Origin: an uncultured Clostridia bacterium
GTDB lineage: Bacteria > Bacillota > Clostridia > Lachnospirales > CAG-274
Direction of reading: 5' to 3'
Assembly: GCA_947627425.1 (NCBI GenBank)
Contig: CANQVZ010000008.1
Coordinates: 1 to 64,000, forward strand
Length of the DNA: 64,000 bases
Shown here: positions 9,868 to 45,733 of the stretch, piece after piece
How positions within the stretch are numbered: position 1 is the stretch's first letter
How the letters are laid out: the number at the start of each line of letters is the position of its first letter
Made by a program: the position numbers and the translations under genes
The notes under the pieces: generated by a model
The model's database searches: none
What the model was told of the DNA's origin: nothing
The model's input: the letters and a program-made list of their open reading frames with translations, nothing else

Positions 9868-10371
9868 CTACTGTTTTGAATCTAAAATATCATTAACCAT
9901 CTTGTAAATATCATCGTCAATAACCGCAATATATACTTCAATATTTTTTTCTGCAGTATATTCACATATTGCATCCACTGCAACTTTTATAGCTTTTTTC
10001 TTTGGATAACCGAATATTCCCGTTGATATGAGAGGGAATGCCACAGAATGACATCCATATTTTTCCGCAAGCGCAAGTGAGTTTAAATAACAAGCTCTCA
10101 GAAGTTTCCTTTCTCCTAAAAAGCCTCCCAGCCAAACAGGTCCCACTGTATGTATCACATATTTACAAGGCAGATTCCAGCCATTAGTGATTTTAGCTTT
10201 TCCAAACATACAGCCATGAAGCTTAAAACACTCCTTCTGCAGTTCAGGGCCTGCTGCCCTATGTATACAGCCATCAACCCCTCCGCCTTTTATAAGCAGA
10301 GGGTTTGCTGCATTTACTATCGCGTCCGCTTTAATTTTTGTGATATCCTCTTTCATAACAGAAATATGCAT
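9868..10371 (-). CDS. macrodomain protein (MacroD/YmdB type, ADP-ribose binding or hydrolysis)
   Basis: The 167-aa protein is a stand-alone macrodomain at full family length. Visible signatures are DITKIKADAIVNAANPLL (adenine and ribose contact), GGGVDGCIHRAAG (catalytic loop of MacroD-like enzymes) and the phosphate loop ISTGIFGYP near the C-terminus. Such proteins remove ADP-ribose from proteins or hydrolyse O-acetyl-ADP-ribose in the cytoplasm. It sits between the SLH protein (11 bp) and the 56-aa membrane peptide (11 bp), within the kinase operon. Which ADP-ribose signal it acts on cannot be told from the sequence. Confidence 0.92.
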   Translation of the reverse strand: MHISVMKEDITKIKADAIVNAANPLLIKGGGVDGCIHRAAGPELQKECFKLHGCMFGKAKITNGWNLPCKYVIHTVGPVWLGGFLGERKLLRACYLNSLALAEKYGCHSVAFPLISTGIFGYPKKKAIKVAVDAICEYTAEKNIEVYIAVIDDDIYKMVNDILDSKQ

Positions 10372-16456: not shown

Positions 16457-16490
16457 AAACCCCCACCGAAAATGGCGGGGGTTTATTTTA
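16457..16490 (+). terminator. intrinsic terminator between convergent gene blocks
   Basis: The stem AAACCCCCACC / GGCGGGGGTTT (one mismatch) with loop GAAAAT is followed by a T-rich tail on the plus strand. It separates the accessory block (+) from the recombinase gene that ends at 16,488 (-), and its A-rich left flank may let it serve both directions. Confidence 0.8.
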
Positions 16491-17921
16491 TAGAAAAGCC
16501 CATTCAATTTTTACATGGTCATCATCAAGGACGATTTTGTCAATAAGCGTCGATATAATTTCTCGCCGATCCGCAGCGTCGGCAGATTTCCATACCGTAG
16601 CAAAATCATCCAAGAGCGCAGCAAAAGCGTCATCGCTATAGTCCCTTTTAGGACCAGGAGGCTCGATAGCAGCAAGCTGTTCTTCAAGGGCAACTTTATC
16701 CCGATGTAGCTTTCCTATACGCGCAGAAACAACTTCCATAGGCATACGCTCGTCCTGATATAAATCCATAAGTCGTCCGATTTGCTTATCCAAATTTTGA
16801 ATTTTTTTTGTAATAATACCAACTTCAGCAGGGACAGAGGCAGTCGTCTCGGCTTTTTTTACTTTTAAAAGTTTTTTATAATAAGACGAATCAAACAAGA
16901 GCCTTGAAACCTCGCCTTCAATAATAGAATCAAGATCAGCCATCCGCCAATTTTTGTTTTTGCATTTTTCGGTCGTCATCATACGCTTCACCGTCCCAGC
17001 CCTAGAATAGCAGGAATAATATTTATAAGTTTTATGATTATGCTTCACATGGTACCTTGCGCCGCATTTTCCGCACCAAACCAAGCCGGTGAGTAAATAC
17101 CTCGACACATAAGCGGAGTCCCCGAATACCTCTTGACGCTTCTTTAAAATGACAGCAACGCGGTCAAAGGAATCCTTGTCTATAATAGCAGGGTGTGCGT
17201 TTTCTGTAACTACGCCGCCGAAGCGCACAGTGCCAAGATAAATATCGGAAGTAAGAATACGACGCACAGACATACGCCCTGACTTTTGAGACCAAGATCC
17301 GTAGCGATTTGTATACCCCTCGGAGCGTAGCCGTTCCGCAATTTTTTCAGGAGAGAATCCGTCAATATACCACTCATAGATTTTACGCACCTGTGCAGCT
17401 TCATACTCGTTTATAACAAGCCGACCGTCAACATAGTTATAGCCAATAGGCGCATAACAACCGCCGTGATACATACCCTCCTTCGCCCTTTCAAGACGAC
17501 CCATAAAGGTGCGCTCCTTGATTTGCTCGCGTTCAAGCTGGGCAAAAACAGAAAGAATACCAATCATAGCCCTTCCAAAAGGCGTAGAGGTATCAAAGGA
17601 CTCGGACATAGATATAAAATCGACATTGTGAGGCAAAAATACATCCTCAAACAAATACAGAGTATCGCGTTGAGAACGAGACAAACGGTCAAGTTTCCAG
17701 ACGATAATGAGGTCAAAGCTTTCTATATCCGATATAAGTTTTTGTATACCGGGGCGATCCAAATTTGAACCCGAATAACCCCCGTCAATATAACATTCCG
17801 CAGGGAGCCAATCATGTGCCTTGCAAAAAGCAAAAAGCCGTTCCTTTTGCGCCCCGATAGAATATCCCTCTTGCGCCTGTTCAAGAGTAGACACTCGGAT
17901 ATATAATGCTACGCGTTTCAT
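16488..17921 (-). CDS. large serine recombinase (phage integrase)
   Basis: The 477-aa protein has an N-terminal resolvase domain with catalytic serine in YIRVSTLEQ (S11), then GYSIGAQKERL, YIDGGYSGSNLDRPGIQKLI and KLDRLSRSQRDT. The recombinase domain follows (GGCYAPIGYNYVDGRL), then a zinc ribbon (CGKCGARY ... CYSRAG ... KCKNKNW) and a C-terminal coiled coil (residues about 370-420). It catalyses integration, and excision with a directionality factor, by double-strand cleavage with a covalent serine link. It is transcribed away from the repressor and toward attL. Its start overlaps the stop of the 225-aa gene by 4 bp, so both are co-translated. Confidence 0.95.
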   Translation of the reverse strand: MKRVALYIRVSTLEQAQEGYSIGAQKERLFAFCKAHDWLPAECYIDGGYSGSNLDRPGIQKLISDIESFDLIIVWKLDRLSRSQRDTLYLFEDVFLPHNVDFISMSESFDTSTPFGRAMIGILSVFAQLEREQIKERTFMGRLERAKEGMYHGGCYAPIGYNYVDGRLVINEYEAAQVRKIYEWYIDGFSPEKIAERLRSEGYTNRYGSWSQKSGRMSVRRILTSDIYLGTVRFGGVVTENAHPAIIDKDSFDRVAVILKKRQEVFGDSAYVSRYLLTGLVWCGKCGARYHVKHNHKTYKYYSCYSRAGTVKRMMTTEKCKNKNWRMADLDSIIEGEVSRLLFDSSYYKKLLKVKKAETTASVPAEVGIITKKIQNLDKQIGRLMDLYQDERMPMEVVSARIGKLHRDKVALEEQLAAIEPPGPKRDYSDDAFAALLDDFATVWKSADAADRREIISTLIDKIVLDDDHVKIEWAFL

Positions 17922-18595: not shown

Positions 18596-18818
18596 AAGGA
18601 ACTACCGAAACAGAAATAAAAGCTCCAAGCCCATCGGCAGCAGGAGACAACGACACCGATACAGAGCCGCCAATATAATCTGCAGCCACATGATAAGGAG
18701 ATACCTCCGACACTCCATTAAATCCATTAGAACGCAAAGAGGATACAACTAAAGGCAACCAATCACCACAAGAACCACAAACCAAAATGGAGCGCGTAAC
18801 AGGTTCATTTTTATTCAT
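18570..18818 (-). CDS. 82-aa lysogeny-block protein, unknown
   Basis: The start ATG at 18,818 (MNKNEPVTRSILVCGSCGDW) is preceded by AAGGGGGC and lies inside the last codons of the repressor gene. A longer frame to 18,866 lacks an RBS. A CGSC pair near the N-terminus may bind metal; the rest is small and hydrophobic (GGSVSVSLSPAADGLGAFIS). No membrane helix is certain. It has no recognised family. Confidence 0.65.
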   Translation of the reverse strand: MNKNEPVTRSILVCGSCGDWLPLVVSSLRSNGFNGVSEVSPYHVAADYIGGSVSVSLSPAADGLGAFISVSVVPFGGAACGA

Positions 18819-19236
18819 ATGTAGTAGCCCCCTTTTTGCGGTTTTCGTCGGCAATTTTAAAAGCAAAATCCAACAATTTTATACGATCGCGTATTTCAAG
18901 AGCTTCATATACACGAACAAGCTCCGCACACTCGTCAGACAAAATACGCTCCCCACCATTTACAACATAAACTGTTCCTGAATTCGGTCCTAAATTGCCA
19001 GAGAGCGACCCGTTGTTGACAAAAGAGGATCGGTTTTTCTCTTCACCGGTTAATAGCCATTCAACAGATACGCCAAAAAAATCAGCAATTTTGCAAATCA
19101 ATTCAGCAGGAGGATCGGAACCCCGTGTACGCCAAGAACTAATGTTCCTTGAATTCGTACCAATAGCAGAAGCAAAATCCTTTTGCGATATATGCCGTTC
19201 CTCGAGAATACTAAAAAGCCGCTCGTTTATAGACAT
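18811..19236 (-). CDS. XRE-family (C1-type) phage repressor
   Basis: The real start is ATG 19,236 after GGGGGTGA; the longer frame upstream covers the promoter region. The 141-aa protein has an HTH at residues about 5-65: INERLFSILEERHISQKDFA, SAIGTNSRNISSWRTRGSDP, ELICKIADFFGVSVEWLLTG. The C-terminal half (YEALEIRDRIKLLDFAFKIA) is probably an oligomerisation helix pair. It faces the early operon across a control region with an operator palindrome, so it is the likely master repressor of lysogeny. There is no peptidase domain, so induction would not occur by LexA-type self-cleavage. Confidence 0.88.
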   Translation of the reverse strand: MSINERLFSILEERHISQKDFASAIGTNSRNISSWRTRGSDPPAELICKIADFFGVSVEWLLTGEEKNRSSFVNNGSLSGNLGPNSGTVYVVNGGERILSDECAELVRVYEALEIRDRIKLLDFAFKIADENRKKGATTYE

Positions 19237-19293
19237 AGACTCACCCCCATAAGCATATAAAGAAAATATTTTCTTAAAAAAGAACAAATTTAC

Positions 19294-19322
19294 TTGACAA
19301 AGAAAAAATGCACTGCTATACT
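19294..19322 (+). promoter_or_regulatory. early (lytic) promoter, sigma-70/SigA consensus
   Basis: TTGACA (19,294-19,299), 17-bp spacer, TATACT (19,317-19,322). This is a near-perfect housekeeping promoter pointing into the early operon. The -10 overlaps a half copy of the operator (ATACTGTAA, 19,318-19,326), which fits repression by the XRE protein. Confidence 0.85.
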
Positions 19323-19378
19323 GTAAGTGTACCCAGACAAAAAAGCAAAAATAGGGTTCAAATTTAAGTACAGCACAA

Positions 19379-19402
19379 TTACAGTATAGCACAATACTGT
19401 AA
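19379..19402. promoter_or_regulatory. operator palindrome for the repressor
   Basis: A perfect inverted repeat, TTACAGTAT - AGCACA - ATACTGTAA, lies 57 bp downstream of the -10 box and before the first early gene. The right half recurs at 19,318-19,326 on the -10. Two sites sharing a 9-bp half match the usual arrangement of a C1-type operator pair. Binding by the 18,811-19,236 product is inferred. Confidence 0.78.
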
Positions 19403-37340: not shown

Positions 37341-38732
37341 GTGGGTAAATTCGATGAATACGGAAAAACGGGACTATTTCGCTTCAATACCGGATGGATT
37401 TACGAAGAATTCCTCCGGGAGCTTCAGGGGAGAAAAGGCGTTGAAGTTTACAAAGAAATGTCCGAAAATGATGATGTAATAGGTGCGATACTGTTCGCCA
37501 CAGAAATGCTCATGCGCCAGAGTGAATGGAACATTCAGGAGGCAGGAACGCAACAGGTGGATATGGACGCCGCAGAATTTGTACGGAGCTGCATGAACGA
37601 CATGGAGGAAACATGGAGCGATTTCATCTCCGAAGTTTTGAGTTTTTTAACCTACGGCTGGAGCTATCACGAAATCGTATATAAACGCAGAATGGGCAAT
37701 ACCAAAGACCCAAAGACCAAGAGCAAGTATACCGACGGGCTTATAGGTTGGAGAAAGCTCCCGATTAGGTCGCAGGACACCTTATGGGAATGGAAATACG
37801 ACGATAACGACAACCTCATAGGACTTATACAATGCGCCCCTCCAAATTATGCGCAAGTATTCATCCCGATTGAAAAGGCGCTACATTTTAAGACCAAAAA
37901 CAGAAAGAATAACCCAGAAGGACGCAGTATTCTGCGCAACTGTTACCGCAATTGGTATTTCAAACGCAGAATACAAGAGATTGAAGGTATAGGCATAGAG
38001 CGAGACCTCGCAGGCTTACCCGTACTCACGGCTCCCGAGGGTGTGGACATTTGGAGCGACGAAAACCGAGAAGAGCTCGAAAAGGCAGAAAGGATAGTAA
38101 GCAGTGTTCGCAGAGACGAAAGAGAGGGAATCGTCCTCGGAAACGGATGGCAATTCACACTAACAAGTACGGGCGGAAGGCGGCAGTTTGATACAAATCA
38201 AATAATAGAGCGATACGACACCCGCATGGCAATGACCGTCCTTGCAGATTTTGTACTTTTAGGACACCAAAATGTCGGCAGCTTTGCGCTTTCAAGCGAC
38301 AAAACAGAAATGTTCGGTATAGCAATGGGCGCGTTCCTCGATTTGATATGCGAAGTATTTAACAGTCAGGCGATCCCACGACTAATTGACATAAACGGCG
38401 ACCGCTTCAAAGGCATTACAGATTATCCCCAGCTCGTACACGGAGACATTGAGACGCAAGACTTAGGACAGCTCGGCGACTTCGTAAGCAAAATGGTGGG
38501 CATAGGAGCAATAACCCCCGACGAGAAAATGGAGGATTACCTGCGTATGACCGCAAACCTGCCGGAGCGCGACTTTGATACAGACTACGGCACCCCAAAT
38601 AAGCCGCCAGAACAGCCACAGAGCGACGAAAACACCGAAAACGAACAGATACAAGACAAAGTGCCGAAAAAGCCTAACACAGCCGCAGGGGACGGCAAAG
38701 ACGGCGCAGATGACGAACCCCCGGAGGGATAA
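37341..38732 (+). CDS. portal protein (DUF935-like)
   Basis: 463 aa, GTG start after AAAGGAG. It shows ENDDVIGAILFATEMLMRQS, SEVLSFLTYGWSYHEIVYKR, LPIRSQDTLWEWKYDDNDNL and LADFVLLGHQNVGSFALSS, the pattern of Mu-gp29/DUF935-type portals. The C-terminal tail is Pro/Glu/Asp-rich. It forms the dodecameric channel at the head vertex. Directly between terminase and Mu-F-type head protein, as in Mu-like heads. Confidence 0.88.
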   Translation: MGKFDEYGKTGLFRFNTGWIYEEFLRELQGRKGVEVYKEMSENDDVIGAILFATEMLMRQSEWNIQEAGTQQVDMDAAEFVRSCMNDMEETWSDFISEVLSFLTYGWSYHEIVYKRRMGNTKDPKTKSKYTDGLIGWRKLPIRSQDTLWEWKYDDNDNLIGLIQCAPPNYAQVFIPIEKALHFKTKNRKNNPEGRSILRNCYRNWYFKRRIQEIEGIGIERDLAGLPVLTAPEGVDIWSDENREELEKAERIVSSVRRDEREGIVLGNGWQFTLTSTGGRRQFDTNQIIERYDTRMAMTVLADFVLLGHQNVGSFALSSDKTEMFGIAMGAFLDLICEVFNSQAIPRLIDINGDRFKGITDYPQLVHGDIETQDLGQLGDFVSKMVGIGAITPDEKMEDYLRMTANLPERDFDTDYGTPNKPPEQPQSDENTENEQIQDKVPKKPNTAAGDGKDGADDEPPEG

Positions 38733-38735
38733 TGA

Positions 38736-41700
38736 ATGGCAAATAAAATAGTATTTACTAAAGCGACAGCGAAAAATAATAAGAAAAAGAAACCCAGTAA
38801 AACCGCAGCTCTTAAAAAGCTTAACAGTTTTTTAAATTCGGAAGAGCCTAAAACCGTTGAACTACTTGTAAATAACCTTCATGCACAAAGTAATAGCATA
38901 ACATACAAGGAGCTTAGGGAGGCATACATGGCAGGAGGAATAACCGGAGAACAATTCATAAAATGGGAAATGAAGTATAGCAACCTTGTGAAGACGGTTC
39001 TGCAGCCTGAATGGGAAAAGGCTGCAGCAGAAGCGGCGCAGGAAATGAAAGACAAATACCCCTATTTTCTCTATCAGCCCGGTGTAGGAGCGGCTGCGGA
39101 CTGGATAAAGCAACACGGGGCAGAACTTGTAACAAATCTAGCAACAGTACAACGGGAGGCTTTAAATGCCGTTATAAGCCATGTAAGCGGATATACGGCA
39201 ATAACACCCGATGCGGCAGCAAGGATAATGCGCTCATGTATCGGGCTAACCAAACCGCAGGCGATCGCAAATTTAAGATATAGGGAAGCAGTAAAAACGG
39301 CTTACATCAATGCGCACCCGAACGGCAAACTTGAAACCGCCGAAAAGAAGGCAAAAGAAGCGGCTGCCAGATATGCCGCACGGCAGCACCGATACAGAGC
39401 GTTCAGCATTGCCCGTACAGAGTTAGCCTTCGGATACAATGCAGGAGCATACGGAGCCACAAAGGACGCTCAATCAAAAGGATATATAGGCGATTGCAAA
39501 AAAGTATGGATGACAGCATACGACGAAAGAGTGTGCCCTATATGCTCCGCAATGGACGGCGAGAAAAGAAATATGGATGAAGCGTTCAGCAACGGAACAC
39601 TCCTGCCGCCCGGACACCCACAGTGCAGATGTGCAGTCGCGTATGAGGAAGTACCGGGAACAACTACGCAGCCACAGCCGGCAAGCAATACAATGGATGC
39701 GCAGTCTCAACAGCCACAGAGTCAACCACAACCGACAGCAGCACAGCCGCAGCAGGCACCAGTACCACAGGCACAACCGACAGCGATACAGCCTCAAATA
39801 ATAGATCCGAATGCCCCGGACATACCTGCCACAATAAAAATGACAGATCAGGAATTGACATATCAAAATGACATTAATTTAGGTGGCACGGGCAAAATGG
39901 AATTATTTAAAGATACAGACGGCAACGACTGGCTGTTTAAACCTGCACGAACCAAAGCGGGAATGCCAGAGGAATTCAGAGCATATGCTCAAGAAGCGGG
40001 ATACAAGGTTCAGGGCATAGTCGACCCAGACACAGCGGTTCAGGTCGGCGTCGGCAATCTCCGCGGTGAATTTGGAGCATATCAGCGAAGAATAAATACA
40101 GTAGAAGGTATAAATTTTAAGAATTGGCAGAGAGGATATGGAGTACCCGACAGCGATATAACGCCCGAAATGTTTAACCAGATCCAAAGAGAACATGTTA
40201 CAGACTGGTTGCTAGGCAATTTTGACAGCCACGGAGGAAACTTCATAACCGATGTAAATGACAATATAATAGGCGTGGATAAAGAGCAAGCCTTTAGGTA
40301 TATAAAAGACAAAGCAAGTCATGTAATGAGCTATAATTATCACCCTAACAGCGCATACGGAGAAACAGAGCCTATATATAACACTATTTACCGCAAATAC
40401 GCAAAGGGCGACATACAACTTGACTTAAACGCAACTTTGCCGTATATTAAAAGAGTGGAGGCAATCCCAGACGCAGAATATAGGGAGATATTCAGACAAT
40501 ACGCCGAGAGTCTGCATGGCAAAGGAAAAGCGGCAGAGGATTTACTCGATACCATTGTAAAGCGTAAACAAAATCTCCGAAAGTCATACAAGCAATTTTA
40601 CAGCGAACTTGAAACAGAGCGAGCAGGAGCAAAGAAAACATTTAAGTTTGCCGACGAAATAGCAGGAACAGCCAAGCCAAAGGCGCCTAAAAAACCAAAA
40701 GCACCAAAGCCACAAGTGGCGGCGGCTCCAAAACCGACTGTTCCTGTTAAGACAGACAGCGGATTTATGATTTCAGATGTACTGAATGACATAACTGTAC
40801 TGCCAAAGACACAGAACGGCGTAGCAATACGATCCGACGGTGGCATGCTCGAACAGATGAATTTGACAGGCAGAATGCTTACTATAGACGGCAACGATTT
40901 CTACGAAATATCTGGGAAACTTACAGAAGATACATGGACTGCAGCGGTAGCCGATGCAAGGAAACGAGGCGTACAAACACCGATAGAATTCTACAGAATG
41001 CAGAATGGTAACAGTTATTCATCAAGTGTAGTAGCTTCTACCATAGATGGCGTGCGGATAACCCTGCCGAGTCAAGCGCAATTTGAAATATATTCAGATA
41101 TTGCCAATAAGAATTTATACAGTATGAGTGGGTATTTCCGCATAAAAGTACCCGTAACAGGCAATACAACAACAGACCGCAAGGCACTGAAGGATATACT
41201 GGACAAGTCAGGCTTAAAAGCATTGACAGTCGACCCCACAGAGGCGGAGGAAAGATTGCTGAAAAAATCTCGTATAGCTTGGCAGAGAGACCCACAGGGC
41301 ATGGAAAGAGCCTTAAAAGCTCCACTGAACCGACGGGAGGCAGAGCTTGACAAGATACTAAGTAAATGCGGCATATCGCCTACAAGAGTTGATAATTTAG
41401 AGCTTCAGGAGATTTTTCCCGGATACAGTATATACATAGACCCCGAAGCTCAGAAAGAATATATGCAGGCAGGACTGACACATATATGGGCTGGAGTAGG
41501 CAATTGCGACGGAGTAGTCGCCATTTGCAAAAGCGACGGTTTAATGGCGACAAATTACCGAATGACCACAGGTATGAAAGACTGTGGAGCAAGTCCCGAA
41601 AAGGACATGAAAACAGGCGGAGCAGACAGTGTATTTACAAGAATAGGCTTAAAGACACAAACAGAGTACGCGCAAAGCTATTTAGGCGATTATTACAGAA

Positions 41701-42089
41701 TAATTATAGATCCAAGTGAAATGAACCGTACAGATTGGTATGCATTTGAATACGACAGTTATGGAGTTACAAAACCCGGAGAGAAAGATGATCGTTTCAG
41801 AAAAAGAAAAAACACAATAGGTTTTATAAAATCGCAAGCAAAGCAATATGCAGACTCTAACGAAATCATGTTTAGACATGGTATATCCACAAATAAATTT
41901 ATAGGGATTTCTTGCCAAAACGGCATGAGAAGAGACGCTCTACTTCAAAAATTCAAAGATGCAGGAATTACCGAAATAAACGGCGTAGACATAAACGATT
42001 TTGTACAAGTTACATGGAAAGTCGGAGATGACTGCCGGCGCGGTATTGAAGGGTTAAGTTATTACGATAAAAATAAACCAAAATTCTGA
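38736..42089 (+). CDS. Mu F/SPP1 gp7-type minor head protein fused to a kinase-like domain and an unknown C-terminal domain
   Basis: 1117 aa. Residues 1-about 310 are a Mu-F-type head morphogenesis protein (FSIARTELAFGYNAGAYGAT; CPICSAMDGEKRN; LPPGHPQCRCAVAYE). A Gln/Pro linker follows (about 311-360). Residues about 365-650 look like a PI3/4-kinase or HipA-like fold: WLFKPARTK (K402), then DWLLGNFDSHGGN (D490, N495, D497, N502) and IIGVDKEQAF (D515), in the order of ATP lysine, catalytic loop and metal Asp. A Lys/Pro linker leads to residues about 690-1117 with conserved-looking motifs GGADSVFTR, DWYAFEYD and NEIMFRHGIS but no family I can name. Fused enzymes on such head proteins are usually carried in the virion and injected. 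Confidence 0.85.
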   Translation: MANKIVFTKATAKNNKKKKPSKTAALKKLNSFLNSEEPKTVELLVNNLHAQSNSITYKELREAYMAGGITGEQFIKWEMKYSNLVKTVLQPEWEKAAAEAAQEMKDKYPYFLYQPGVGAAADWIKQHGAELVTNLATVQREALNAVISHVSGYTAITPDAAARIMRSCIGLTKPQAIANLRYREAVKTAYINAHPNGKLETAEKKAKEAAARYAARQHRYRAFSIARTELAFGYNAGAYGATKDAQSKGYIGDCKKVWMTAYDERVCPICSAMDGEKRNMDEAFSNGTLLPPGHPQCRCAVAYEEVPGTTTQPQPASNTMDAQSQQPQSQPQPTAAQPQQAPVPQAQPTAIQPQIIDPNAPDIPATIKMTDQELTYQNDINLGGTGKMELFKDTDGNDWLFKPARTKAGMPEEFRAYAQEAGYKVQGIVDPDTAVQVGVGNLRGEFGAYQRRINTVEGINFKNWQRGYGVPDSDITPEMFNQIQREHVTDWLLGNFDSHGGNFITDVNDNIIGVDKEQAFRYIKDKASHVMSYNYHPNSAYGETEPIYNTIYRKYAKGDIQLDLNATLPYIKRVEAIPDAEYREIFRQYAESLHGKGKAAEDLLDTIVKRKQNLRKSYKQFYSELETERAGAKKTFKFADEIAGTAKPKAPKKPKAPKPQVAAAPKPTVPVKTDSGFMISDVLNDITVLPKTQNGVAIRSDGGMLEQMNLTGRMLTIDGNDFYEISGKLTEDTWTAAVADARKRGVQTPIEFYRMQNGNSYSSSVVASTIDGVRITLPSQAQFEIYSDIANKNLYSMSGYFRIKVPVTGNTTTDRKALKDILDKSGLKALTVDPTEAEERLLKKSRIAWQRDPQGMERALKAPLNRREAELDKILSKCGISPTRVDNLELQEIFPGYSIYIDPEAQKEYMQAGLTHIWAGVGNCDGVVAICKSDGLMATNYRMTTGMKDCGASPEKDMKTGGADSVFTRIGLKTQTEYAQSYLGDYYRIIIDPSEMNRTDWYAFEYDSYGVTKPGEKDDRFRKRKNTIGFIKSQAKQYADSNEIMFRHGISTNKFIGISCQNGMRRDALLQKFKDAGITEINGVDINDFVQVTWKVGDDCRRGIEGLSYYDKNKPKF

Positions 42090-42103: not shown

Positions 42104-42469
42104 ATGGCAGAAAATATTGTAAAAAAGAATAGGCTATATGCTATTCAATTTTCAGAGCATTCTGAACCAAGCGAAATAATAATGAATGCTGAGATTGGCA
42201 GAAAAGGGTTTAAAGGAATATGTTACCTTACACCACCATCGCATGGACATATGATAAGAGGTAAAGTTACCAAAAAAACCAAAAACGGCTTCAAATTCAA
42301 AGAAATAGACAACCCCGAAGAATGGATCTTTACAGAAGTTACTTATGAAAACTTCTGCAGCAAGTACTACAAGATAGTATACGGAGGCGCAACCCTTAAA
42401 GATGAGGTAAGCAGTACAGAGGAACTGGAAAAATACTACCATGACCACTTCCCGAATTATGCAGACTAA
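42104..42469 (+). CDS. 121-aa protein after the head-kinase fusion, unknown
   Basis: Small basic protein (MAENIVKKNRLYAIQFSEHS; GKVTKKTKNGFKFKEIDNPE) with a good RBS (AAAGGAG) and no recognised family. It is followed by a terminator at once, so it is the end of the first late transcript segment. Being coupled with the fusion protein, it may be a partner or inhibitor of its enzymatic domains; there is no motif to prove this. Confidence 0.65.
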   Translation: MAENIVKKNRLYAIQFSEHSEPSEIIMNAEIGRKGFKGICYLTPPSHGHMIRGKVTKKTKNGFKFKEIDNPEEWIFTEVTYENFCSKYYKIVYGGATLKDEVSSTEELEKYYHDHFPNYAD

Positions 42470-42509: not shown

Positions 42510-42537
42510 AACGCCATACACAAGTGGCGTTTTTTTA
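42510..42537 (+). terminator. internal intrinsic terminator in the late operon
   Basis: AACGCCA pairs with TGGCGTT around TACACAAG, followed by six or seven T. It separates the terminase-portal-fusion block from the protease-capsid-tail block, so part of the late transcript may end here and reduce downstream dosage, or the structural genes have a separate promoter not seen by eye. Confidence 0.78.
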
Positions 42538-42558
42538 TTGAAAAAGGAGGATAACAAA

Positions 42559-43035
42559 ATGGCAGCTAAAACATTTAAACAAGTTATAAAAGCAAGAGAC
42601 CAGACCGCCCACCTTTATAAGTTAAAAGTGCTTAAATCCGATGATGAGCAAAGGCTTGTATTTGGATGGGCAAATGTAACAATACGGATTGATGGAGAAC
42701 AAATCGTTGACTGGCAGAAGGATATAATAGACACCGAAGACCTCGAAAAAGCTGCATACGAATATGTTGCGCATTTCGGAACCGCAGGAGAAATGCACAG
42801 GCGTGGCGGTGTAGGTCGGCTCGTAGAAAGCATGGTATTCACCAAAGAAAAGGCAACAGCCCTTGAAATACCTAAAGACATACTCCCGGAAGGTTGGTGG
42901 ATAGGCTTTCACATAGAAGACGAAGAAGTATGGGAAAAAGTTAAGAGCGGAGTGTATCCAATGTTCAGCATAGAGGGTAAAGCAGTAAGAGTGCCGATCA
43001 AGGAAGGAGGTGAAAGCGATGGCGACAATGCTTAA
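42559..43035 (+). CDS. XkdF-type prohead protease
   Basis: 158 aa from ATG 42,559 (AAAGGAGG). Typical XkdF features: RLVFGWANVTIRIDGEQIVD, WQKDIIDTEDLEKAAYEYV, AGEMHRRGGVGRLVESMVFT, GWWIGFHIEDEEVWEKVKSG, YPMFSIEGKA. PBSX XkdF is a putative serine protease that trims the scaffold. It overlaps the scaffold gene by 17 bp. Confidence 0.86.
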   Translation: MAAKTFKQVIKARDQTAHLYKLKVLKSDDEQRLVFGWANVTIRIDGEQIVDWQKDIIDTEDLEKAAYEYVAHFGTAGEMHRRGGVGRLVESMVFTKEKATALEIPKDILPEGWWIGFHIEDEEVWEKVKSGVYPMFSIEGKAVRVPIKEGGESDGDNA

Positions 43036-44233
43036 AGATTTATCTATAACAAGCGTTGATCTCGTAGACAGAGGCGCAAATCCCGATGCACATGTAAAGC
43101 TGTTTAAACGAGACAAAGACCACAACAATGCCCCGGAAACGGGGATGGATGAAGGACTGTTTAAAAAATTCCTGTATTGGCTCGGCAAAGGATTTGTAGA
43201 GGCAACAGGCGAAAGGCAGGAAGCAGAAGACCTGACTGCCGAGAGTAGCGTTGAAAAAGACGCTCATACATTCGGCGAAAAAATAAACAGAGTTATGCTG
43301 GAGGAAGTAACAAGAGAAATGCATGAATTCACATACGCCCTTGCGGATAGTTTGTGTTCTATAATTTGCGATAATTCCCTTACTTCGGAAAGCAAAAAGA
43401 CGCTCATGGCGCAAAGTTTAGAGGAATTTAACACCACAGTGCGCGGAGCTATGGACAGTTGGACAAAGGGAAAGAAGATAACGGACGATAATGACTCGAC
43501 CGAAGAAGCAGGAATCCAGAAATCAGACGCAGAAGCAGAAGAACTGGAAAAAATATTAAAAAACAATGGAATTAAAGAATCAGAAGCCGAAACGGCAACA
43601 GCCGACGGCGAGAAGGAGGAAACAGACACAATGAAAATTGACAAATCAAAAATGACGGCAGAGGAACAGGCTGTTCTTGCTGATTTTGAAAAGAGATACG
43701 GCATGGCAGACGAACCTGACACAGGCAACACACCTGATGAGCCTATAATCAAGGATGCAGGAGCTGAAAGCGAGACGGGCGAGAGCACAGAGCTTCACCC
43801 TGAAGTAGCAAAGGCACTTGACGAATTCAGAGAGATAAGCAAGCAGAGAGACGCAGAAGTCGCAGAGCTTAAAAAGAACCTTGAAATCGAAAAGCTTAAG
43901 ACAGTAGCCAAGAAGTATGAGGTTCTCGGCAAGAATAGCGACGATTTAGCGACTAAGCTCTACGATTTAAAGAAGGCAGGCGGCACAGTCTATGACGACT
44001 ATGTAGCCCTTCTCGACGAAAATGTAGAGACAGTTACAAAGAGTGGCTTATTTGGCGAAATCGGCAGCAACCAGCAGGGCAGCATGGGCACAGCACAGAG
44101 CTTACAGACAAAGGCTGCAGAAATAGGGAAAAGCGCAGGAGGTATGTCTTCCGCCGAGGCGATCGTCAAAGCATTTGAAGATAACCCCGAGCTTGCGGCA
44201 CAGTATGACGCAGAATACAAAGGCAATCGTTAA
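43019..44233 (+). CDS. scaffold / capsid assembly protein
   Basis: 404 aa from ATG 43,019 after GGAAGGAGG; the GTG at 43,010 is inside the RBS. It starts MLKDLSITSVDLVDRGANPD, a conserved N-terminal of XkdF-linked proteins, and continues with a strongly acidic, helical, low-complexity body (ELKKNLEIEKLKTVAKKYEV) that is typical of scaffolds between protease and capsid. The N-terminal motif is shared with XkdF C-terminal domains, so the pair may be a split XkdF. Confidence 0.75.
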   Translation: MATMLKDLSITSVDLVDRGANPDAHVKLFKRDKDHNNAPETGMDEGLFKKFLYWLGKGFVEATGERQEAEDLTAESSVEKDAHTFGEKINRVMLEEVTREMHEFTYALADSLCSIICDNSLTSESKKTLMAQSLEEFNTTVRGAMDSWTKGKKITDDNDSTEEAGIQKSDAEAEELEKILKNNGIKESEAETATADGEKEETDTMKIDKSKMTAEEQAVLADFEKRYGMADEPDTGNTPDEPIIKDAGAESETGESTELHPEVAKALDEFREISKQRDAEVAELKKNLEIEKLKTVAKKYEVLGKNSDDLATKLYDLKKAGGTVYDDYVALLDENVETVTKSGLFGEIGSNQQGSMGTAQSLQTKAAEIGKSAGGMSSAEAIVKAFEDNPELAAQYDAEYKGNR

Positions 44234-44692: not shown

Positions 44693-45733
44693 ATGGCTAT
44701 AAACACAGCTAATATTGCGGCAAACATACAGAAAGGCGCATTCAAGCCGCACCTTTATTTAACCAACATGTGCCTTGCATATTTTCAGCAGGCTGCAGGT
44801 TTCGTGGCAAAAAAAGTGTTCCCGATTTTGCCGGTACCCACCAGTTCAGCACACTACTACGAGTTCGACAAGGGCGACCTTGCAAGAGACAACATGGCGA
44901 GGAAGCCTGAATTTGGACATGTAGCTCCCGGCATCTACGGCAAAAGTGATAAGACATATCACTGCGAAGTGGATCAAGTAATCACAGGAATAGACCAAAT
45001 AAGCACACTGGACTTTCAGCGTACAAACGCCCCTGCAGTAATTGACCCACGCAGAAGCAAGGTTCGCTGGGTAGCCGAGCAAATGAACATACACCTTGAC
45101 AGAATATGGGCAAACAAATATTTCAACAGCGAGAGCTGGGGAAATGTACTTACAGGCAAAAACGCAGCGCCGAGCGAGAACGAATTTTGGCAGTTCGACA
45201 ACGAAAACTGCGACCCCGTATCCCTTATGTCCCAGTTAAGGCTTAAGATGCTTTTAATGGGATTGCGTAAGCCTAACAAGGCGGTACTGGGCGCAAACGC
45301 ATACGCAGCGTTAACCCTCAATCCCTCAATCCTCGAAAGGATAAAATATCAGGGCAGCGAAGCAAACCCAGCTAATGTAACAGCAAATGTACTGGCTCAG
45401 CTTTTCGGGCTTGACGAAATCGTAGTTGCAGAAGCGGTTTACAACGCAGCGCCATACGGTGCAAAAGATGATTTAAAGTTTATCTGCAATCCTAACGATG
45501 TACTCCTTGTTTACACAACAAGCAGCCCGAGCATAGAAGAACCGAGCGCAGGTTATACATTCACATGGGATATGTTAGGCAACGGTCAGTATACCGCAGT
45601 ACAGCAGTTCCTCGGAGCCCCTGCAACCCATACAGAGTTTGTAGAGGGTTTGCTTTGCACAGACCCAGAGATTACAGCGCCCGACCTCGGAATCTACTTA
45701 AAGGACGCAGTAAGCGAAGGATTTACAATTTAG
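44693..45733 (+). CDS. major capsid protein
   Basis: 346 aa with the HK97-fold major head pattern of Mu/PBSX-like phages: MCLAYFQQAAGFVAKKVFPI, YYEFDKGDLARDNMARKPEF, AVIDPRRSKVRWVAEQMNIH. C-terminal half includes KFICNPNDVLLVYTTSSPSI and GYTFTWDMLGNGQYTAVQQF. Strong RBS (AAGGAGG). It forms the icosahedral shell. Confidence 0.88.
   Translation: MAINTANIAANIQKGAFKPHLYLTNMCLAYFQQAAGFVAKKVFPILPVPTSSAHYYEFDKGDLARDNMARKPEFGHVAPGIYGKSDKTYHCEVDQVITGIDQISTLDFQRTNAPAVIDPRRSKVRWVAEQMNIHLDRIWANKYFNSESWGNVLTGKNAAPSENEFWQFDNENCDPVSLMSQLRLKMLLMGLRKPNKAVLGANAYAALTLNPSILERIKYQGSEANPANVTANVLAQLFGLDEIVVAEAVYNAAPYGAKDDLKFICNPNDVLLVYTTSSPSIEEPSAGYTFTWDMLGNGQYTAVQQFLGAPATHTEFVEGLLCTDPEITAPDLGIYLKDAVSEGFTI

What the first reader, a model, noticed from the sequence alone, without database searches (positions are those of the whole stretch)
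38736..42089. Head morphogenesis protein carrying a PI3/4-kinase-like domain plus an unknown third domain
After the Mu F-type part comes a region with K402 in WLFKPA, D490-x4-N495-x-D497, N502 and D515 in GVDKEQAF, in the order and rough spacing of lipid-kinase-like/HipA folds. The last 430 aa hold three conserved-looking motifs (GGADSVFTR, DWYAFEYD, NEIMFRHGIS) with no family I can name. Enzymes fused to Mu F/SPP1 gp7 proteins are known to travel in the virion (ADP-ribosyltransferases are the known case); a kinase and a second effector on one head protein would be a double payload. The 121-aa gene right after, closed off by a terminator, may be its partner.
Basis: partly seen in the sequence, partly recalled or inferred. 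Interest (0 to 1): 0.75.

Follow-up and report, generated by a model that had tools for sequence, protein, structure and literature searches.

The report
Phage head protein: kinase plus ADP-ribosyltransferase
A prophage carries one head protein that joins a capsid domain to a kinase and to a DarT-like ADP-ribosyltransferase, followed by a small gene that looks like its antidote, so this phage may inject two enzymes at once into the cells it infects.

Summary
The 1117-aa ORF (38736-42089) is real, intact, and lies in the head module of a contractile-tailed temperate prophage. It has three parts. (1) A MuF/SPP1-gp7 domain. (2) A kinase domain: the AlphaFold model (pLDDT 90) matches CtkA and PI4KII (Z 14), with K402, D497, H499 and D515 invariant. 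Its second half (aa 904-1098) has the fold of DarT ADP-ribosyltransferases (Z 9-11 to DarT structures only; the next fold scores 6.5), with R942 and E1043 invariant. The motif-1 histidine is replaced by A919. The 121-aa gene behind it belongs to a family that follows this ART module in 52 of 56 distinct genes and follows none of 32 related MuF genes with other C-termini. It also occurs alone in at least 13 genomes without the ART, and once elsewhere in this genome, as orphan immunity genes do. Kinase and ART occur in the same 5 of 398 genomes. They are adjacent separate genes on Streptomyces plasmids, and a second kinase family is fused to the same ART in CPR bacteria. Best reading: a MuF polymorphic toxin with a cooperating kinase-ART payload and a cognate immunity gene. 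Enzyme activity, packaging and neutralisation are untested.

The parts
38736..42089 (+). MuF-kinase-ART head protein gene, 1117 aa
   Evidence: open ORF; architecture shared with many phage relatives
38793..39650 (+). MuF / SPP1 gp7-like N-terminal domain (aa 20-305)
   Evidence: PF04233 E 1e-14, TIGR01641; PHROG head morphogenesis
39651..39842 (+). P/Q-rich linker (aa about 306-369)
   Evidence: sequence
39843..40640 (+). kinase domain of the CtkA / PI4KII / HipA fold group (aa 370-635); K402, D497, N502, D515
   Evidence: model m3d481ee42bb8 pLDDT 89.9; fold matches; invariant residues
40788..41390 (+). first half of the C-terminal module (aa 685-885), confident model but no clear fold match
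   Evidence: best weak match Z 5.6 to a CYTH-type protein, not usable
41445..42029 (+). DarT-like ADP-ribosyltransferase domain (aa 904-1098); R942, E1043; A919 at the motif-1 histidine position
   Evidence: model m0fa02cf00409 pLDDT 90.1; DarT structures Z 9.1-10.8; conservation
42104..42469 (+). 121-aa candidate immunity gene, cognate to the ART module
42510..42538 (+). intrinsic-terminator-like hairpin with T tract
   Evidence: sequence; fold energy of the hairpin -10.4 kcal/mol
37341..38732 (+). portal protein (context)
   Evidence: Portal_Mu E 2e-36
42538..43035 (+). prohead protease, XkdF type (context)
   Evidence: Peptidase_S78_2 E 2e-26
44693..45733 (+). major head protein (context)
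   Evidence: PHROG 1005 E 2e-73
16488..17921 (-). large serine recombinase, prophage integrase (context)
   Evidence: Resolvase + Recombinase
18811..19392 (-). CI-type repressor (context)
   Evidence: HTH_3, Phage_CI_repr

Best explanation
This is a phage MuF polymorphic toxin with a two-enzyme payload and its own immunity gene. The MuF domain builds the protein into the head (inferred from the family). On infection the C-terminal part enters the cell with the DNA (inferred). There a HipA/PI4KII/CtkA-type kinase and a DarT-like ADP-ribosyltransferase act together. Most likely the ART modifies a host nucleic acid or protein, and the kinase phosphorylates either the same target or the ART module so as to switch or tune it. 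The 121-aa protein binds and blocks the ART in the producing cell, and relatives of it held alone by bacteria protect against such phages. Shown here: the domain folds, the conserved active-site residues, the link between ART and small gene, the link between kinase and ART, and orphan copies of the small gene. Inferred: enzyme activity, delivery, target, the order of events and neutralisation.
For: Fold: the kinase model scores Z 14.3 to CtkA and PI4KIIbeta, 11.7 to MavQ, 10.1 to HipT and 9.3 to HipA. The C-terminal model puts only DarT entries on top (8baq 10.8, 7omu 10.7, 7omw 9.8, 7yk3 9.2); the next fold is Tpt1 at 6.5. Active sites: K402/D497/H499/D515 in 28/28; R942 in 38/38 and E1043 in 37/37. 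DarT needs R51 and E160 (PMC9967889). Polymorphism: the same MuF N-terminus carries ADPrib_exo_Tox, Gln_amidase or other C-termini in other phages. Small gene: behind the ART module in 52 of 56 distinct genes. Among MuF relatives with enough flank it follows 21 of 21 with the module and 0 of 32 without. It stays when the kinase is missing (L013, L106). It stands alone in 13 genomes with E <= 2e-16 and no ART, and as a 43% identical intact gene on another contig of this genome. Kinase with ART: the same 5 of 398 genomes. They are adjacent genes on Streptomyces plasmids (L252, L253) and separate nearby genes in G564. A second kinase family is fused to the ART in CPR bacteria and in the phage protein L073. 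Kinase relatives in mycobacteriophages are fused to an unrelated ART class. An ADP-ribosylglycohydrolase gene lies beside one CPR ART-partner pair. Precedent: Bxa, a MuF-ART with a binding immunity protein (PMC11699363).
Against: No activity, toxicity, binding or virion data. Sequence evidence for DarT is weak: Pfam DarT E 0.03 in 3 of 7 relatives and none for the window's own copy; hhalign with three DarTs gave probability 3.9%. The histidine that binds the adenine-side ribose of NAD+ in DarT (H13) is alanine here and is kept in only 12 of 38 relatives, so this copy could be altered or inactive. Several ART relatives have no kinase (L013, L021, L106 and the more distant ones), so the kinase is not essential to the module. 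The small gene lies inside the late operon with no clear promoter of its own, which would also suit a chaperone.
Confidence: 0.7

Rival explanations
1. The small gene is a packaging chaperone or assembly factor for the large C-terminal module, not an immunity protein, and the ART works only as a host-takeover enzyme like T4 Alt.
For: It lies in the late head operon next to its partner with no promoter above chance. T4 Alt and other head-packaged ARTs are described as host-modifying enzymes (PMC9503650).
Against: At least 13 genomes hold copies with no ART module in the genome, and this genome itself holds an intact second copy on another contig, which a dedicated chaperone would not explain.
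Confidence: 0.2
2. The kinase and ART domains are degenerate and serve as structural or binding modules in the head.
For: Motif-1 histidine lost in this copy (A919). Phage Mu F itself carries an inactive PBECR domain (PMC5512222).
Against: All kinase catalytic residues and the ART R and E are invariant over sequences down to about 43% (kinase) and 21% (ART module) identity. A structural part would not need a cognate small gene that follows the ART only.
Confidence: 0.12
3. The kinase is a safety catch rather than a second weapon: it phosphorylates and silences, or on entry activates, the ART in the same chain.
For: Kinase and ART go together in fused and two-gene forms; in this phage family the kinase was found only with this ART.
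Against: Kinase-free relatives keep the ART and the small gene (L013, L106), so the ART can be managed without it.
Confidence: 0.3

Closest known systems
MuF polymorphic toxins (Jamet 2017, PMC5576092), including Apk2 and Bxa (PMC11699363, PMC12226406)
   Same: MuF N-terminus in the head module of a temperate phage, swappable C-terminal toxin, small cognate gene behind; Bxa is also an ART
   Different: Two enzyme domains in one chain; the ART is DarT-like. Neither a kinase nor a DarT-like ART on a MuF protein was found in the papers I could search
DarT / DarTG (PF14487)
   Same: fold of aa 904-1098 and an invariant R and E in similar places along the fold
   Different: far below family score, motif-1 histidine lost here, no DarG macrodomain or NADAR partner; fused to a phage head protein and kinase
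HipA/HipT, CtkA and type II PI4-kinases
   Same: fold and catalytic K, D, N, D
   Different: below Pfam cut-offs; a MuF-linked module; no HipB-like partner seen; substrate unknown
Mycobacterium abscessus prophage 'minor capsid and ADP-ribosyltransferase fusion' (BK061312 gp54)
   Same: MuF-type domain + homologous kinase + ART on one protein next to the portal gene
   Different: the ART is an ADPrib_exo_Tox (R-S-E) domain; the kinase is not mentioned in its annotation; the small genes behind were not compared with the partner family
Polyvalent proteins (Iyer 2017, PMC5512222)
   Same: virion-linked multi-domain effectors with ARTs and kinases among their parts
   Different: the kinase described there is a reduced Ser/Thr-type one in other lineages; whether the CPR type-2 kinase seen here is related was not tested

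Membership tests
MuF polymorphic toxin | N-terminal MuF domain | tested here: met
   PF04233 and TIGR01641 above cut-off
MuF polymorphic toxin | gene in the head module of a temperate phage | tested here: met
   portal before, protease and capsid after; serine recombinase and CI repressor
MuF polymorphic toxin | same N-terminus joined to different C-terminal toxin domains | tested here: met
   relatives with ADPrib_exo_Tox, Gln_amidase and other C-termini
MuF polymorphic toxin | small cognate gene directly behind | tested here: met
   21 of 21 with the module, 0 of 32 without
MuF polymorphic toxin | toxicity relieved by the small gene; presence in the virion | not testable with these tools
   needs experiments
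DarT (PF14487) | DarT fold | tested here: met
   Z 9.1-10.8 to all DarT entries listed, well above the next fold
DarT (PF14487) | score above the family cut-off | tested here: not met
   best E 0.03 among relatives, none for the window copy
DarT (PF14487) | catalytic arginine and glutamate (R51, E160) | tested here: inconclusive
   R942 and E1043 invariant and in fitting positions, but no residue-level superposition could be made
DarT (PF14487) | motif-1 histidine (H13) | tested here: not met
   A919 in the window; H in 12 of 38 relatives
DarT (PF14487) | DarG macrodomain or NADAR antitoxin next to it | tested here: not met
   adjacent small protein has no Pfam match above cut-off and no PDB match
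HipA / PI4KII / CtkA kinases | kinase fold of this group | tested here: met
HipA / PI4KII / CtkA kinases | catalytic Lys, Asp, Asn, Asp | tested here: met
   K402, D497, D515 in 28/28; N502 in 27/28
HipA / PI4KII / CtkA kinases | Pfam score above cut-off | tested here: not met
   PI3_PI4_kinase E 0.007 at best in 3 of 8 relatives, HipA_C 0.027 in one
HipA / PI4KII / CtkA kinases | lipid or protein kinase activity | not testable with these tools
   needs assay
immunity protein | orphan copies in genomes without the toxin | tested here: met
   13 genomes at E <= 2e-16 and a second copy in the own genome
immunity protein | neutralises the toxin | not testable with these tools
   needs co-expression

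The most novel reading that the evidence does not exclude
Kinase plus ADP-ribosyltransferase is a mobile two-enzyme weapon. The two activities act in sequence or on one target, and the pair has been assembled repeatedly: in phage heads with two kinase families and two ART classes, as adjacent genes on Streptomyces linear plasmids, and on CPR chromosomes. Bacteria answer it with a dedicated small immunity family.
Probability: 0.45. Interest if true: 0.85.

Novelty: new variant of a known kind. Interest (0 to 1): 0.72.

Why it matters
MuF toxins are a known family, but only Apk2 and Bxa have been characterised according to the papers read. A head protein with two enzymes plus a matching immunity gene would be a ready test of why temperate phages carry toxins in their heads. 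The kinase-ART pairing recurs in unrelated elements, so one activity probably depends on the other. Orphan immunity genes in bacteria point to real selection by such phages.

Tried and rejected
Single-sequence and profile searches of the PDB by sequence found nothing for the whole protein, the kinase, the C-terminal module or the small partner. Profile comparison with three DarTs was too weak to use alone. The DUF4811 hit of the small gene (E 0.02) and the Pfam CIS tape-measure hit of the neighbour 43010-44233 are below cut-off and were ignored. Capsid decoration as the role of the C-terminus: rejected, the fold matches are DarT. A lipid-kinase function cannot be claimed, since CtkA, a Ser/Thr kinase, matches equally well. 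Aa 685-885 gave only weak matches (CYTH-type Z 5.6, YbjN 4.7) and stays unassigned. Search of plasmids for the small gene: none. A MuF single-sequence scan of viral contigs found one locus only and was replaced by an alignment scan. BFVD search gave uncharacterised phage and giant-virus proteins.

Full report
What is there. ORF 38736-42089 encodes 1117 aa and occurs once in a 2.1 Mb genome. It lies between the portal gene and an XkdF-type protease gene, followed by the major head protein. The element has a large serine recombinase, a CI-type repressor, a contractile tail sheath and baseplate J, so it is a temperate, contractile-tailed prophage. The N-terminal 305 aa are MuF/SPP1 gp7.

Kinase. 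Pfam gives no hit for the window's own kinase region. Three of eight close relatives hit PI3_PI4_kinase at E 0.007 at best and one hits HipA_C at 0.027, all below cut-off. An AlphaFold model from 28 aligned relatives has pLDDT 89.9. Foldseek and VIA-align place it with kinases: CtkA of Helicobacter 14.3, PI4KIIbeta 14.3, PI4KIIalpha 14.1, Golgi casein kinase (Fam20-type) 11.8, MavQ 11.7, HipT 10.1, HipA 9.3. K402, D497, H499 and D515 are the same in all 28 relatives and N502 in 27. Protein or lipid substrate is open.

C-terminal module. A model from 38 relatives has pLDDT 90.1. Residues 904-1098 match DarT structures: 8baq Z 10.8 over 166 residues at 3.7 A, 7omu 10.7, 7omw 9.8, 7omv 9.5, 7yk3 9.2. 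Tpt1 follows at 6.5. Pfam DarT was also the only family hit by several relatives, though only at E 0.03. R942, G961, G962 and R969 are invariant in 38 sequences and E1043 in all 37 that have a residue there. DarT depends on R51 and E160 (PMC9967889). The histidine of motif 1 is alanine here; 12 of 38 relatives keep it, among them the most distant. I call it DarT-like, not a member of DarT. Aa 685-885 form a confident but unassigned part.

Partner gene. A profile of the 121-aa family was built from genes behind the ART module and then searched over all frames of the fetched loci. It is found behind 52 of 56 distinct ART genes with enough flank, from Firmicute phages to Polyangia and Saccharibacteria, and nowhere else in those loci. 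Part of this is circular, because the profile was trained there. The MuF scan is the better test. Relatives with the same N-terminus but other C-termini (ADPrib_exo_Tox, Gln_amidase, peptidase-like, HNH-like, or none) never have the partner: 0 of 32, against 21 of 21 with the module, Fisher p 3e-15. The contigs are related, so p overstates the case. The partner stays when the kinase is missing: L013 keeps only 'IVDPDTAVQVG' of the kinase, and L106 has none. In 398 genomes of the phylum the partner occurs in 21 and the ART in 5. Thirteen genomes have the partner at E <= 2e-16 with no ART. Some lie in prophage replication regions (L234-L238). Others lie in chromosomal settings, two of them (L240, L245) beside an AAA gene that Pfam in L240 calls OLD-like. 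This genome has a second intact copy on contig 17, 43% identical. Orphan copies are typical of immunity genes and are hard to explain for a packaging chaperone.

Kinase and ART belong together. (a) The kinase and ART profiles find the same 5 of 398 genomes; leaving out this one, 4 of 397. In G564 they are separate genes about 3.7 kb apart. (b) On Streptomyces linear plasmids (25 records matched by the ART search) two were read in full: the kinase gene sits directly before the ART gene (L252, L253). In L252 both proteins start with MGTNSKSSHESYA. (c) In Saccharibacteria, Azambacteria and one phage protein (L073) a different kinase family precedes the same ART in one chain. It aligns to the phage kinase by profile (hhalign E 3e-5, probability 73%) with the D-N-D core in register. 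(d) In mycobacteriophages the homologous kinase is fused to ADPrib_exo_Tox. Against: about a third of the ART genes have no kinase fused, and none was detected nearby. So the kinase is a frequent, not obligatory, companion.

Function. The best reading is a MuF polymorphic toxin: capsid domain, two enzymes, immunity gene. The closest tested cases are Bxa (MuF-ART with a binding and a hydrolytic immunity protein, PMC11699363) and Apk2 (PMC12226406). MuF-ART fusions of the Alt/VIP2 and N4 classes are published (PMC9503650). I found no paper with a kinase or a DarT-like ART on a MuF protein; the library is open-access only, so this is not proof. An ADP-ribosylglycohydrolase gene (E 3e-71) next to one Saccharibacteria ART-partner pair fits ADP-ribosylation as the activity.

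Limits. No structure-level residue alignment to DarT, no model of the partner, no experiment. Viral loci overlap and are not independent. Delivery in the virion is inferred from the MuF family.

Noticed in passing
window 9868-10371 (-): Macrodomain protein (Pfam Macro E 2e-42) encoded just outside the prophage; could remove ADP-ribose, link to the prophage ART unknown.
   Followed up: partly
L246 (G000 contig 17) 5359-5721 (-): Second intact copy of the 121-aa partner family in the same genome, 43% identical, behind a dockerin-like gene, no MuF gene near.
   Followed up: yes
L252 and L253, about 1.6-6.5 kb: Streptomyces linear plasmids: kinase gene followed by DarT-like ART gene; in L252 both proteins start MGTNSKSSHESYA, as if both used one export or loading signal. 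The 154-aa gene behind was not found by the partner profile.
   Followed up: partly
L121 6116-9850: Saccharibacteria chromosome: ART gene, partner gene, then an ADP-ribosylglycohydrolase on the other strand, between genes that look like EF-G and EF-Tu by sequence (not profile-tested).
   Followed up: partly
L112, L115, L117, L119, L120, L126: A second kinase-like family (GTNEGGWY, YVKFY, ANWDVVGL..DN, RIDNGG) with no Pfam match, fused to the DarT-like ART in CPR bacteria.
   Followed up: partly
L240 6350-8856 (-), L245: Orphan partner gene beside an AAA ATPase gene; in L240 Pfam finds AAA_15 and an OLD-like TOPRIM domain, and a further upstream ORF resembles PglZ by eye, perhaps a defence island.
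   Followed up: partly
L013 5855-8311: Kinase deleted from the MuF protein with the remnant IVDPDTAVQVG left in the linker, ART and partner kept.
   Followed up: yes
L070 3943-7242: MuF protein with an apparent intein-like or HNH insertion (CFLPGTMITN...VSHN CRC) inside the MuF cysteine region.
   Followed up: no
L014 4693-8205 (BK061312 gp54): Mycobacterium abscessus prophage MuF-ART protein also holds the kinase domain, which its annotation does not mention.
   Followed up: yes
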